From positions 33,160,915-33,224,914 of the forward strand of contig OX419336.1 in the NCBI GenBank assembly GCA_948470475.1: a stretch of DNA of 64,000 nucleotides. Direction: 5' to 3'. Positions 26,842 to 57,980 of the stretch are shown piece by piece. Both the position numbers and the translations under genes were made by a program. This stretch comes from Galaxea fascicularis. Lineage: Eukaryota > Cnidaria > Anthozoa > Scleractinia > Euphylliidae. Within the stretch, counting starts at the first letter, position 1. Every line of letters starts with the position of its first letter. The notes beneath the pieces were generated by a model. The model had not been told where the DNA came from. It made no database searches and saw nothing but the letters and a program-made list of their open reading frames with translations.

Positions 26842-29800
26842 CTAGCGGTCTGAATCATAATCTGGCTTATCCAGGAGACGAGCGTCTTTGAGAAAATCGT
26901 TGTAAAAAGCCAGGTTATTTTTCGGGCGGCAGAATGTGTTACGGCAACATCTGACACACAGGATCAGCACAAGAAGCGAGAAAAGAACGGTGATAACAAC
27001 GAAGGCTGTTAAAAAACCTGTAAGAGAAAAATTATATTGAAAAAGATAAACAAGACTACCCGTGTAAAGAACAAGATTGGATCATCTCCAGTGTAATAAC
27101 TCACAGCTGACGTAAAACACAGAAAACAAAAGATTATTATCAACAAACCTACAACAAAAAAACAAAGAAAACCTTTTCAGGTTATTACACTGGCGATGAG
27201 CCAGAACATCGCCCTTGCAGGACTTAAATATTAAAGGCACATTGTGATTACACACAGGTAAACCAATATATCCTTACTTCTATAAATTATCGTCTTCACG
27301 CACTTCACGTCTTCCACGCCACAAGCCTTGTCAATGTTGTCAGGAATGACATCGGCCGTCTTTCTGACAATGCAAGGGTAAACAAACAAGATATCAAGGG
27401 CTAGGGCTCTTCACAGTCAATCTACTTCACACGTGACCAGTTATTTCAAACGTGATATGAACATTCGGGGTCCTCCTTGCAACTTGTGAAATCCTCCCGA
27501 AATAAATTTGCAACAAGAGAAGTTAGAGGAGAGAGGTTTGATAAACTACGCTTTGTGAAGCAACTTAACAAGAAATGTCTGTTCCACAAGGTTAACTAAT
27601 ATCTCGTGATTACAAGTACTTACTTGATGAACTGGTCTAGAGGGCAATACTCCGTACAGTTTAGTAGCGTCAGAACTCTTGGCTCCGTACTTTGGCCAAA
27701 TCGATACAGTATACGCACTGCCAGGTCCTTACTATCAAGGAAAATCAAAAATCAGTGACGAGGAGGCGCGCGTTTCTCAAAACTCCCGAAAACGTTTTGG
27801 GACCGAAAAACTATTTTACTTGCATTAGGTTCATTCACAGTCACCAAGATGTCAAAGGGAGGAAGGGAAAGGCGACTCGTGCATTTTGGGGTCACTTATG
27901 TTCAGGGTGGAGCGATCGGTCAATCCTGGACACATCCGTTTTGGGCCGACCATCAAAAAGAATCGTCCAGCCAGTTTTCAAATTTTCCCTATGCATGGAA
28001 GCTGGGACCGTTTTACAACGTTTTCGCCGGTCGAATTCCTCGTTTTAGTGTACAATGAAAGCTAAACCAATGATAGAGAGATGTATTTTCAAATTTGCGC
28101 CACTATACTGACTGTACCGACGAGGCCTAGGTGAGTCAGTATTCTGACGTGTGACGGAGGTATGTGACTTTGATTGAAAGTACTAAAGTACAAAGGAAGG
28201 TGTGACAGTGACTGAAAACTACCGAAGTGCAGAGGAACGCATGACTGTGACTGAAACCACTGAAGAAGAGACGAATGCGTGACTAATACTGAAACTACTG
28301 AAGACTAAAGCACGGCGAAATGCGTGACTGTGACTGAAACCACTGAAGTAAAGGGGAATGCGTGACTGTGATTGAAAACACTAAAGCACGGCGAAATGTT
28401 TGACTGTGACTGAAACCACTGAAGTAGAGAGGAATGCGTGACTGTGCCTGAAAACACTGGAAGTACAAAGGAATGCATGACTGTGACTGAATCCACTGAA
28501 GAAGAGACGAATGTTTGACTGTGACTGAAACCACTGAAGTACAGAGGAATGCGTGACTACGCCTGAAAACACTGAAGTACAAACGAATGCGTGACAACAT
28601 TGGATCGATTCCCACTGAGAGATAACTTATTGGATTTGATCACCTCTGTGTTCTTTTCTCATTCTCGGTCGAGGGAGTCACCTGCACTTTGGAGAAAAAC
28701 GTCACGACCGTAACGAGTGCATACTACATCGTGTATTTAGCGTCTCTCGGACCGTGATGAAGCGTTTCAGAGTGGATGGCAAAAACGATACAAAAACGAT
28801 AGTGTGGATAAACTGATACATTCGATCCACTTCCAGAACACTCAGGTGGCCAGACAGTCACAAAAGCACAAAGTTACACGGATACTCATTTAGTGTTCTT
28901 ACGTTTCGTCCTCCGAATCCGAGTAAAGTTCAATGATAACTGCACTGGAGTACGCTGGTGATATCCCATCAAACAACTTGAGTGCACTCAGCAAGGCAGA
29001 CACTGTGGTGTCGTGCTGTAACAAAGATCACACAATGACCGCTTTGTTTGTTTGTTTGTTCTGTTTTTTTTCCCCAAGACAGTCCTCAAACTTAAAAGTG
29101 GTCTAAAAATGGGGTGTACAATACAATACATTACATTTTATTAGCCTTCCCCAAAGGGTATTTCAAGACTAATTTACAGGACTTTTAGGGTGGTTACAGC
29201 CAGAGTTCGTTACGTCCCTAGTGGTTCTTTAACGTCCATTTACCGGTTTTAACGTCCGTCCGGTTTATCGTCCTTATCCCAGAAGACTAGAAAGTCTAAC
29301 CATTTGCAGATGCCATTGCAAATTCTATTGGTATTCCACTTACGACACGCAGAATTAATTCTGGCTTCCAGCTTTGACTAAAACAAATAAAACCAAACCT
29401 TTCTTCAGCTTACAAAACAAATCGCATGCGTGGTGATGGCGCAGTAATGTCATGCCATTTCATGACGTTCCTTCATGTTCAGCCAAGGAAAGAAATTGTT
29501 ATACTTACAGCCGAATAAATGTATAATTTTTTGCTGGTTGGTTCGAGATGCTCTTTCATGTTATTAACCATCGCTCCCAGTAAACCCCCTGCAAAAGACA
29601 AAAAAGGACAAAGTCGTAAGTTGTTTGAAGGGACTACGTCACAACAATTTTGTTATTTTGGATCAATTCTTCCCAAAAACCGTTACTTGGGGCTTTTATT
29701 CATACAAAGTTCCTGATAAACTATGAGGTGGATATCGACTCAATTTTTTCAAAGAGAGCAACCCATAATAAGGTTTTTGTTGAGATAGCATCGAAACTTG

Positions 29801-55959: not shown

Positions 55960-57980
55960 AGCGAGTAATTTCAAAATCGGACGAGAGCGCAGCGCGAGTC
56001 CGATTTGGAATTACGAGCACGATTACGGACTCTCTTTGTCACTAAAGAACAACATTACTGAACGCAGATTGGCTGAGACAGAGGGCATTTTTTCTTACAA
56101 GGGCATTTTTAGAAATCAAGAGGGCTGATTACTATGTTCTTTGTAAATCAGTTCAAACAAACTTTACAAAGGCCAATGTGATTCATTTGAAACGAAATTT
56201 GTTTTGTTTTGTTTATTTTTTTTCTTTTTGGCCAGGACTTTGGTTAAATCTCATTGAATCGATTGGTTGGTTCGATTTGATTGAAATTTGTATTTGAAGT
56301 TTCTGAAATTGCCCTCGCCGCTGCGCTACTCGGGCAATTTCGGCAACCTCTGAAAACACGCGTGATGATTAATCCTTAAGTTTACTCGGCCCCATGCGAT
56401 CACCTATACGAATTGTACGACACGAGGTCCATTACTAATTAATCGTATCAATAACAAATTTCGAGATTAAGCAATTTTTGAGAACCTCCTTTCAGTGCAA
56501 GTCAGTGGTATGTTCCAAGAGTCTGACAAACAGTCGAGAAACAGTATGGAAGAGGCCATTAAAGTGCGTGTAATTGACGAGCGAATGGCGTAGATGTCCA
56601 ATTACAGGTACCCGATTACAAAACGTTGCTATTAGATACGTGTAATTGGACACCCATGTTATCGCGCGCCAATTACGCGACAAATAGGCACGCGCAGAAC
56701 CAATCAGAATCGAGAATTTTGTTATAAATACAATTAGAAACAAAATAGAACCGCTCCGTGCCAATTTATTGCTAATCGTAGCCGGTAGTAACCAAATAGA
56801 TTGAAGAATTTTATGACTTATGTTTATTTATTGTTTGTAAGTTAAGATAAGAAATATGATCATCAAATACGGTTCAACAATCCATTCTATTATTTAAAAC
56901 AACTCATGATCAATATTCCCAAAAGCCTGAACTCAAACGTACACTAATGTGGCAAAAATATTACCCTGAAAACCCTAAAAACAAGCCAATGTTGTTGCTC
57001 GTTCAATATCGAAAATTAACTTTAAACTCGTCTTTGGTGCATCGATAGAGTCCCAGCACAAAGGTCTCATTGGGCTGCTTGAAGACAGACTGATACCTTC
57101 AATAGTCTGAACACTCAATAATATAATAATTGGCGTATACGTAAACTTGACAATTAATTTGGATGGGGCTTATTGGATCGTCTCCCGTTTTGTTCTTTGT
57201 AACGGCTTTATACGTGTTACCCGAGTCATGTGAGCGTTTAGAAAATGTATGCATGAAAAACACTTTCGATGAATATTGTGAAACAGACACAGATTAAACC
57301 ATATTTTTACACGTGGCGATAAGCTGTATGTCAAAATTTCAATTTTTGGGAACGGACGTTGTGTTTCACATTGACCTCAACGATTTCTACCTAGCAAGCT
57401 GACAATACTGCTCATTTAGTTGGGTTGGTGTAATTAGATATTCTCGGTCGCAACAAGGCCGACTTGGGTTCTTTTGACGTGACATTTTACCACCACAATG
57501 GCGTTGTTCACTTGACTGTTCACTTGGCGTTGTACCATCCAGCTTCTCACCAAGCCAAACAGTTTTCGCTTTCTTTTGTCTAATATGTCATGGTGTTCTC
57601 CGCGATAAAAATGTCAACCTACCAAATATCTGATTTGCCAGATTCTTGTTCAAAATCTGTAAAAGACTTTACAAAAAAAAACTATACCTTTATTCTTAAG
57701 TTTTTCACAAGTTCTCACAGAATGAGGGAAAAAGCTATACCCATTGCATGAAAGCTCTAGATGGGCGTAAACAGCACATTCGGGCACTTTTACCTAAACT
57801 CAAAAGCATGAGTTGGATTTGATAGAAAATGCAACATTTTAAAGTTAAATATTTACTCACAGCGTTCACCATTACAAGTTTTTTCCCCGCCTCATTATCC
57901 GCGCCTGTTACCGGTTTTAAGTTCTGCAGTGGAAAAACAAACCCCGCCAAAAGGCAGATGTAGGTATAGCTCCATGCCAT
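48204..57980 (-). CDS. histidine acid phosphatase B with C-terminal WSC-like domain, 14 exons, 497 aa
   Basis: Exons (minus): 57980-57861, 55631-55536, 54608-54513, 53862-53776, 53558-53493, 53112-53014, 52358-52272, 51626-51500, 51107-51013, 50446-50331, 49900-49796, 49720-49644, 49035-48857, 48347-48204. They sum to 1494 nt in one frame. Signal peptide at the start (MAWSYTYICLLAGFVF). Catalytic RHGDRSP starts at R43 (H44), the active-site Arg is R108, and HD is at 292-293, so activity is expected. After about residue 390 paralogue A has a membrane anchor, while B has a lysine-rich linker and a Cys-containing domain (PRGCYKDKK, FAACKELAEKEGYEIFGIQ, KCVTTKNGK, SGCVVD, LANFVYKP). This resembles the WSC-like domain of secreted cnidarian proteins. 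Likely secreted or extracellular. A GTAAGA overlaps the stop codon, so further exons are not excluded. Confidence 0.93.
49977..50047 (+). repeat. CTGCA/CTACA pentanucleotide microsatellite
   Basis: About five CTGCA units followed by about ten CTACA units. It lies in the intron between exons 11 and 10 of phosphatase B. It is complementary to the tract at 50699-50830. Confidence 0.9.
50699..50830 (+). repeat. TGCAG/TGTAG pentanucleotide microsatellite, inverted to 49977-50047
   Basis: Imperfect TGCAG and TGTAG units with some variants (TGAAG, TGGAG continue to about 50960). It lies in the intron on the other side of exon 10 and is complementary to the CTGCA/CTACA tract, so the two can pair in the transcript. 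Confidence 0.9.
51772..52214. mobile_element. TTAA-flanked foldback MITE in intron 7 of phosphatase B
   Basis: TTAAAGTGCACCTAATCCCA at the left and the complementary TGGGGTTAGGTGCACTTTAA at the right. The arms continue through AAAATATTTTT, GCACCTGTTCGAAAC and TATAGGCTGT-like blocks. It has TTAA at both edges, as in the smaller MITE at 39672-39920. Confidence 0.8.
53986..54351. mobile_element. two tandem foldback MITEs with AGGCCATTTCCGAATTA ends
   Basis: Copy 1 starts at 53986 and copy 2 at 54159. Each has arms with TTCAAAGCGAGTCTTGGTGC and ATGCAAATCAATTTTCATTC and the complements. Copy 2 ends TAATTCGGAAATGGCCT at 54351. Copy 1 lacks its last bases because copy 2 abuts it. It lies in intron 3 of phosphatase B. 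Confidence 0.85.
55930..56345. repeat. palindromic repeat cluster in intron 1 of phosphatase B
   Basis: AATTTCAAAATCGGAC is nearly complementary to GTCCGATTTGGAATT around GAGCGCAGCGC (about 55968-56016). A related small palindrome, GAAATTGCCC...GGGCAATTTC, lies near 56304-56342 with GCTGCGCTACTCG in its loop. Probably parts of one foldback element. Confidence 0.5.

What the first reader, a model, noticed from the sequence alone, without database searches (positions are those of the whole stretch)
26842..57980. Tandem acid phosphatase paralogues with swapped C-terminal modules
Both genes have the same 12-exon phosphatase body, the same intron phases, equal lengths of exons 4 to 8 and complete catalytic residues. 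After the shared DVIP...C segment they diverge. A ends in one membrane-anchor exon with YNDF and DARLL tail motifs. B ends in two exons encoding a Cys-containing WSC-like domain. This is a clear case of exon-level module exchange after duplication, turning a lysosome-type enzyme into a predicted secreted one or the reverse. A histidine acid phosphatase fused to this domain is unfamiliar to me.
Basis: partly seen in the sequence, partly recalled or inferred. Interest (0 to 1): 0.8.

Follow-up and report, generated by a model that had tools for sequence, protein, structure and literature searches.

The report
Coral phosphatase pair, one with new tail
Two neighbouring coral genes encode the same acid phosphatase body, but one ends in a membrane anchor and the other in a different small cysteine-containing domain that several stony corals share, so a lysosome-type enzyme probably gave rise to a secreted one.

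Summary
Confirmed and sharpened. Genes A (13 exons, 439 aa) and B (14 exons, 497 aa) splice cleanly on the minus strand with a shared 12-exon histidine acid phosphatase body. A ends in one membrane-anchor exon, B in two exons encoding a basic 107-residue tail without an anchor. The tail belongs to B: it is full-length in Porites lobata and Oculina patagonica, present in partial records of P. evermanni and Desmophyllum, and in proteins on 1.7-2.6 kb contigs too short to hold the introns. Three of 13 B-type records lack it. In three species A and B records share a contig length. Actinia and Xenia are anchored, so the anchor is probably ancestral. Nothing shows a reciprocal exchange; terminal-exon replacement in B fits better. 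WSC membership is not met: best E 0.0057 for the tail and 0.0011 for a relative, all below cut-off, with four of eight cysteines. Timing relative to the Actinia split is unresolved. Secretion and docking to glycan or matrix are inference. New variant of a known kind, moderate interest.

The parts
26842..41233 (-). Gene A, 13 exons, 439 aa, membrane-anchored histidine acid phosphatase
   Evidence: spliced model; His_Phos_2 E 4.8e-44
48204..57980 (-). Gene B, 14 exons, 497 aa, histidine acid phosphatase with WSC-like tail
   Evidence: spliced model; His_Phos_2 E 3.5e-32; full-length relatives
41126..41233 (-). A exon 1, hydrophobic N-terminus (possible signal peptide)
   Evidence: KD15 1.79
39244..39336 (-). 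A exon 2, RHGDRSP
37476..37565 (-). A exon 3
35764..35850 (-). A exon 4, RSSDRDR
34670..34735 (-). A exon 5
33306..33404 (-). A exon 6
32847..32933 (-). A exon 7
31055..31181 (-). A exon 8
29509..29588 (-). A exon 9
28903..29015 (-). A exon 10, catalytic HD (SA/HDTT split across exons 9 and 10)
27624..27731 (-). A exon 11
27278..27363 (-). A exon 12, last shared exon, ends in phase 1
26842..27017 (-). A exon 13: transmembrane anchor and tail with YNDF and DARLL
   Evidence: KD19 2.98; motif conservation
57861..57980 (-). B exon 1, hydrophobic N-terminus (possible signal peptide)
   Evidence: KD15 1.59
55536..55631 (-). B exon 2, RHGDRSP
54513..54608 (-). B exon 3
53776..53862 (-). B exon 4, RSSDLDR
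53493..53558 (-). B exon 5
53014..53112 (-). B exon 6
52272..52358 (-). B exon 7
51500..51626 (-). B exon 8
51013..51107 (-). B exon 9
50331..50446 (-). B exon 10, catalytic HD (SA/HDTT split across exons 9 and 10)
49796..49900 (-). B exon 11
49644..49720 (-). B exon 12, last shared exon, ends in phase 1
48857..49035 (-). B exon 13: first half of WSC-like tail (GCYKD ... CKELAEKEGYEIFGIQ)
48204..48347 (-). B exon 14: second half of WSC-like tail (NKCVT ... GC ... GVG ... FVY) and stop
48109..48114 (-). AATAAA downstream of B stop, possible polyadenylation signal
   Evidence: sequence
45254..46072 (-). Intronless ORF with NADAR domain between B and A (neighbour, not part of the pair)
   Evidence: PF08719 E 2.3e-13

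Best explanation
An anthozoan ancestor had a type I membrane, lysosome-type histidine acid phosphatase. Before the stony-coral lineages sampled here separated it was duplicated. Copy A kept the anchor exon and its DxxLL/tyrosine tail, so it most likely still goes to endosomes and lysosomes. In copy B everything after the phase-1 intron 12 was replaced by two exons encoding a four-cysteine, basic, WSC-like domain. B therefore lost its anchor and sorting tail and is most likely secreted as an active acid phosphatase whose tail docks it to glycan or matrix. Shown: gene structure, catalytic motifs, conservation of the tail in several stony corals, no anchor in the tail, anchors in Actinia and Xenia. 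Inferred: secretion, lysosomal route of A, domain capture by exon shuffling or fusion, docking role. My estimates: architecture and direction about 0.85, secretion about 0.7, docking by the tail about 0.45.
For: Clean spliced models. B with tail in P. lobata P0001 and Oculina P0003 (full length), P. evermanni P0002 (partial record), P0004 (491 aa on a 1,724-base contig), P0005-P0009 and P0012 on contigs of 1,666-2,592 bases, and a Desmophyllum fragment P0121. B clade 100, A clade 100, A+B 94 UFBoot. Of the tails I scanned, 13 of 13 from A-type, Actinia and Xenia have an anchor (KD19 2.65-3.49) and 9 of 9 tailed B-type have none (at most 0.88; P0007-P0009 not scanned, their tails equal P0004's). 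DARLL in 11 of 11 A-type tails compared, DASLL in Actinia. No clear anchor-exon remnant near B or tail remnant near A. ACP2 and ACP3 carry a YXXO sorting motif (PMC9526733, passages).
Against: No transcript of the window's own species was seen, and its species is not known. Of 13 B-type records in the list (P0001-P0012, P0021), three lack the tail: P0010, P0011 and the Acropora millepora record P0021, whose end looks damaged. One A-type record, Acropora cervicornis P0026, ends without an anchor, again in a damaged-looking end; neither P0021 nor P0026 was in the scan. The Oculina record is called isoform X2 and X1 was not seen. No dedicated signal-peptide predictor was run. No structure could be computed. 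The AU test does not reject a duplication older than the Actinia split (p 0.306 and 0.18).
Confidence: 0.66

Rival explanations
1. Exons 13-14 of B belong to a separate downstream gene, and true B ends elsewhere.
For: Intron 12 of B is 608 bp and reads through to an early stop (sequence); B-like P0010 and P0011 end right after the exon 12 homology.
Against: Full-length B with tail occurs in P. lobata and Oculina, and tailed B lies on contigs of 1,666-2,592 bases that cannot hold the introns; reading frame and splice phase continue.
Confidence: 0.04
2. B makes both forms by alternative ends: a tailed form and a short soluble form stopping in or near intron 12, so the tail is optional.
For: P0010, P0011 and P0021 lack the tail; Oculina isoform naming; vertebrate ACP3 is recalled to have secreted and transmembrane splice forms.
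Against: 10 of the 13 B-type records listed have the tail; P0010 lies on a 1,227-base contig and may be cut off.
Confidence: 0.2
3. The duplication and tail gain predate the Actinia-coral split, and sea anemones lost B or hold it unseen.
For: AU test does not reject A+Actinia (p 0.306) or B+Actinia (p 0.18); only the best 120 of 220 homologues were listed.
Against: ML tree puts A and B together with 94 support; the only Actinia protein in the list is anchored and A-like.
Confidence: 0.3
4. The tail is a true WSC domain that has simply diverged, with WSC-type glycan binding.
For: WSC is the only family matched at E <= 1 by 7 of 7 isolated tails, and relative P0174 reaches E 0.0011; the four cysteines could be half of the WSC pattern described in PMC9024836 (my reading).
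Against: All hits are below the curated cut-off (best 19.5 of 27.8 bits). In one search WSC appeared for only 3 of 10 proteins, and not for full-length P0001, P0003 or P0004; for full-length B its E is 0.5. 4 of 8 cysteines, no CGG motif. No PDB match for the tail and only four chance-like ones for the profile.
Confidence: 0.45
5. B is a secreted gland- or venom-type enzyme rather than a surface-docked phosphate scavenger.
For: Histidine acid phosphatase is in the abbreviation list of a figure in a study of cerianthid venom transcriptomes (PMC7460484, one passage); the trypsin-WSC protein of Nematostella belongs to a study of gland cells (PMC6767649, passages).
Against: No expression data for B were seen; the cerianthid sequences were not compared with A or B.
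Confidence: 0.15

Closest known systems
Lysosomal acid phosphatase ACP2 and prostatic acid phosphatase ACP3 (histidine phosphatase branch 2)
   Same: Catalytic body, RHGxRxP and HD motifs; B's best PDB sequence matches are prostatic acid phosphatases (E 2.4e-78); A keeps an anchor plus a cytoplasmic sorting-type tail.
   Different: B has neither anchor nor sorting tail and carries an extra 107-residue domain; A's most conserved tail motif is DxxLL, with a strict YxxO in only 5 of 11.
Leishmania membrane (LdMAcP) and secreted (LdSAcP) histidine acid phosphatases (PMC4687092, passages)
   Same: One phosphatase body in membrane-anchored and secreted homologues of one genome.
   Different: No WSC-like tail is mentioned in the passages seen; here a new domain stands in place of the anchor. 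Presumably an independent event.
Trypsin-WSC protein of Nematostella (PMC6767649, passages)
   Same: A cnidarian enzyme joined to a WSC domain in one lineage only.
   Different: Different enzyme; called WSC by its authors, whereas B's tail fails the curated cut-off.
WSC domain of yeast Wsc1 and human Kremen1 (PMC9024836, passages)
   Same: WSC is the best Pfam hit of the tail; the order of its four cysteines could match half of the WSC set (my reading, no structure).
   Different: Four instead of eight cysteines, no CGG motif, sub-threshold scores.

Membership tests
Histidine phosphatase branch 2 (His_Phos_2, PF00328) | Profile score above curated cut-off | tested here: met
   A 151.7 bits, B 112.6 bits, cut-off 23.6
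Histidine phosphatase branch 2 (His_Phos_2, PF00328) | RHGxRxP, RSxDxDR and HD motifs | tested here: met
   Present in A and B; RHGXRXP named as the family motif in PMC4687092 (passages), the roles of the other residues recalled
Histidine phosphatase branch 2 (His_Phos_2, PF00328) | Acid phosphatase activity | not testable with these tools
   needs protein
Lysosomal (ACP2-type) acid phosphatase | Type I anchor and cytoplasmic YxxO sorting tail, gene A | tested here: inconclusive
   Anchor met; YNDF present in the window copy, but YxxO in only 5 of 11 A-type tails compared; DxxLL in 11 of 11
Lysosomal (ACP2-type) acid phosphatase | Type I anchor, gene B | tested here: not met
   KD19 max 0.36 in the last 110 residues; no clear anchor-like exon nearby
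WSC domain (PF01822) | Profile score above curated cut-off 27.8 bits | tested here: not met
   17.3 bits for the isolated tail, 11.1 for full-length B, best relative 19.5
WSC domain (PF01822) | Eight conserved cysteines in four disulfides, CGG motif (PMC9024836) | tested here: not met
   Four cysteine columns, three invariant in 7 of 7 tails and the fourth in 6 of 7; no CGG
WSC domain (PF01822) | PAN/Apple-like fold | not testable with these tools

The most novel reading that the evidence does not exclude
Stony corals evolved and kept a dedicated secreted acid phosphatase, B, by terminal-exon replacement, and its WSC/PAN-derived tail tethers it to an extracellular glycan surface (mucus, skeletal matrix or the wall of algal symbionts), giving the coral a localised phosphate-releasing enzyme beside the lysosomal one.
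Probability: 0.2. Interest if true: 0.65.

Novelty: new variant of a known kind. Interest (0 to 1): 0.42.

Why it matters
It is a clean example, shared by several stony corals, of an enzyme probably changing its destination by replacing its last exon after duplication, with the original arrangement still close by. If B is secreted and docked, it adds a defined host enzyme to the question of how corals obtain and control phosphate. It also points out a small cysteine domain that no Pfam family covers above its cut-off.

Tried and rejected
Separate-gene reading of exons 13-14: very unlikely, given full-length relatives and contigs too short for the introns. Remnant search for an anchor exon near B or a tail exon near A, over 2,942 stop-to-stop frames of 15 aa or more: apart from the genes' own exons the best strays are 7.5 bits (anchor, E 0.71, + strand at 15211-15402) and 10.4 bits (tail, E 0.089, + strand at 32830-32958, opposite to gene A); I take both as noise. 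Region search with B's tail returned 2 proteins of 606 candidates and missed known relatives such as P0001, so it is not evidence of absence. PDB by sequence for the tail: none for the single sequence; with the profile four weak hits, best E 0.039, three of them orbivirus VP3, judged chance. NCBIfam for tails: no family in more than 2 of 7. Transfer RNA scan: none. Alignments A3-A5 were made for structure prediction, which did not run; A3 was also read. Paper searches: 0 papers with acid phosphatase + WSC domain + coral, prostatic acid phosphatase + coral + symbio or acid phosphatase + tandem duplication + scleractinia. WSC domain + acid phosphatase: 16, none on cnidarians by title (listing). 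Histidine acid phosphatase + cnidaria: 3, a cerianthid venom study (one passage), a jellyfish genome and a bacterial secretion study (listing). WSC domain + cnidaria: 5 (listing), of which passages of two were read; PMC5792016 names an unidentified coral host protein with a WSC domain, lower at high temperature, and has no mention of acid phosphatase. Lysosomal acid phosphatase + coral + symbiosome: one deep-sea mussel paper; acid phosphatase + coral + skeletal organic matrix: two skeleton papers (listings). Selection on the tail could not be tested without relatives' DNA; A-B dS is saturated, and the second estimator, YN00, failed. The identity table at the end printed nothing and was redone.
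Full report
What is there. On the minus strand, gene B (57980->48204) lies upstream of gene A (41233->26842). Both models were rebuilt by hand from the sequence and splice with GT-AG introns throughout: A has 13 exons and 439 residues, B 14 exons and 497 residues. The 12 shared introns have identical phases, and exons 4-8 have identical lengths (87, 66, 99, 87, 127 nt). The other shared exons differ by 3 to 15 nt. tblastn at E 0.001 finds no third phosphatase copy in the window. 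Both bodies match His_Phos_2 far above its cut-off and keep RHGDRSP, RSSDxDR and SAHDTT. The nearest solved structures to B by sequence are prostatic acid phosphatases. The species is not given; both window proteins fall inside the coral A and B clades.

The ends. After exon 12, which ends in phase 1 in both genes, A has one exon with a strong hydrophobic stretch (KD19 2.98) and a short tail, while B has two exons whose maximum is 0.36. Exon 12 is 86 nt in A and 77 nt in B, so the junction is shared in phase but not to the residue. In 11 of 11 A-type tails compared (window A and ten records; the damaged-looking P0026 left out) DARLL is present; a strict YxxO motif is present in 5 of 11. B tails are basic (net +3 to +10, pI 8.7-9.5 in 7 of 7) with three cysteines invariant in 7 of 7 and a fourth in 6 of 7. 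P0006-P0009 have tails identical to P0004 and were left out of alignment A2; the Desmophyllum fragment P0121 was found later.

Is B's tail real? The homologue search with B gave 220 proteins at E <= 0.001, of which the best 120 were listed. Among them P. lobata P0001 and Oculina P0003 align over 99-100% of B, and P. evermanni P0002 (a partial record) carries the tail. P0004 encodes 491 residues on a 1,724-base contig, and P0005-P0009 and P0012 sit on contigs of 1,666-2,592 bases. B in the window spans 9.8 kb, so these contigs are most simply spliced transcripts; I did not see their DNA. Of the 13 B-type records listed (P0001-P0012 and P0021), 10 have the tail and 3 do not. A second search with the tail profile gave 57 proteins among 583 candidates. 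I read 21 of them, and 14 of those 21 end the exon-13 homology at FAIQ followed by V, as expected for genomic reading frames running into the same intron.

History. A tree of 35 sequences (33 chosen from the 120 listed plus the two window proteins) on 334 body columns gives A 100, B 100, A+B 94, A+B+Actinia 88. The AU test does not reject A+Actinia (p 0.306) or B+Actinia (p 0.18), so the duplication precedes the sampled stony corals but its relation to the sea-anemone split is open. Hydropathy shows anchors in Actinia and Xenia; hydrophobic ends of the same kind can be read by eye in echinoderm and vertebrate relatives, though not in all listed records. The Actinia tail resembles A's (SFLAAF ... 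LLKDASLL ... DYDSE). The parsimonious direction is loss of the anchor and gain of the tail in B. A-B synonymous divergence is saturated. A scan of 2,942 reading frames found no clear anchor-like exon near B and no clear tail-like exon near A. 'Replacement' is therefore better supported than 'swap'.

What the tail is. WSC is the only Pfam family hit at E <= 1 by 7 of 7 isolated tails, but the best score is 17.3 bits against a cut-off of 27.8. Against it: of ten further proteins scanned WSC appeared for 3 (P0174, P0122, P0121) and not for full-length P0001, P0003 or P0004. The distant relative P0174 reaches 19.5 bits, E 0.0011. My tail profile scores P0174 at 58.5 bits against a maximum of 7.0 in 500 shuffles; P0174 was found by a profile of the same tails, so the shuffles control for composition only. 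PMC9024836 (passages) gives eight conserved cysteines, four disulfides and a CGG motif as WSC features; B has four cysteines and no CGG. Their order could fit one PAN-core bridge and the first WSC-specific bridge, which is my inference. I call it WSC-like and do not file it as a WSC member. P0163 of Desmophyllum reports a different contig (4,495,023 bases) from the B fragment P0121, so the domain probably exists at another locus and a donor gene is plausible.

How it probably works. A: type I membrane phosphatase routed to endosomes and lysosomes, by analogy with ACP2 and ACP3, whose YXXO tail signal is described in PMC9526733 (passages). B: enters the secretory pathway through its hydrophobic N-terminus, has no anchor, and is released; the basic cysteine domain would hold it on glycan or matrix. 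[quoted passage not shown] A gland or venom role is a rival: histidine acid phosphatase is named in a figure legend of a cerianthid venom study (PMC7460484, one passage). No step of this paragraph was tested here beyond sequence features.

What does not fit. P0010, P0011 and P0021 are B-like but lack the tail, and A-like P0026 lacks the anchor; P0021 and P0026 look like damaged gene models, which is my reading. In a smaller tree, Acropora P0021 groups with P0004-P0006 and Oculina P0003 (100), away from Porites and the window. That does not follow the coral tree as I recall it and suggests further B duplications. In that tree, with Actinia as the only outgroup, B has support 100 and A 73.

Novelty. 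Secreted and anchored versions of one histidine phosphatase are known (Leishmania, PMC4687092, passages), and so is a cnidarian enzyme-WSC fusion (trypsin, PMC6767649, passages). This combination did not turn up in the searches, most of whose hits I saw only as listings. I rate it a new variant of a known kind.

Noticed in passing
17291-17588 and 17967-18264, + strand: Two complete metazoan SRP RNA matches in tandem, 243.7 and 238.7 bits.
   Followed up: no
45254-46072, - strand: Intronless 273-codon ORF with a NADAR domain (E 2.3e-13) between the two phosphatases; could be a retrocopy or an acquired gene.
   Followed up: partly
60253-60775: 33-bp tandem array, 15.8 copies, open for about 200 codons on both strands; the weak LbH_EIF2B hit is below cut-off.
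   Followed up: no
50705-50828 and 49974-50048: Pentamer arrays (AGTGC in intron 9, CACTA in intron 10) of gene B.
   Followed up: no
28164-28595: 38-bp tandem array, 11 copies, in intron 10 of gene A.
   Followed up: no
P0010, P0011 and P0021: B-like phosphatases without the tail; truncated contigs, damaged models or tail-less forms.
   Followed up: partly
P0122, P0163, P0172, P0174: Relatives of the tail domain; P0163 reports another Desmophyllum contig than the B fragment, so a second gene probably carries the domain.
   Followed up: partly
P0001, P0002, P0021: B-type proteins of the two Porites species and of Acropora do not follow the recalled species tree; B probably duplicated again within corals.
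   Followed up: partly
4792-5151 (-), 2116-2445 (+), 15914-16198 (-): DDE transposase piece, Myb/SANT-like ORF and a universal stress protein piece.
   Followed up: no
53917-53991 and 39458-39528: A 75-bp stretch, 76% identical, in introns of B and A; apart from exon 4 the only DNA similarity blastn found between the two loci, probably a dispersed repeat.
   Followed up: no
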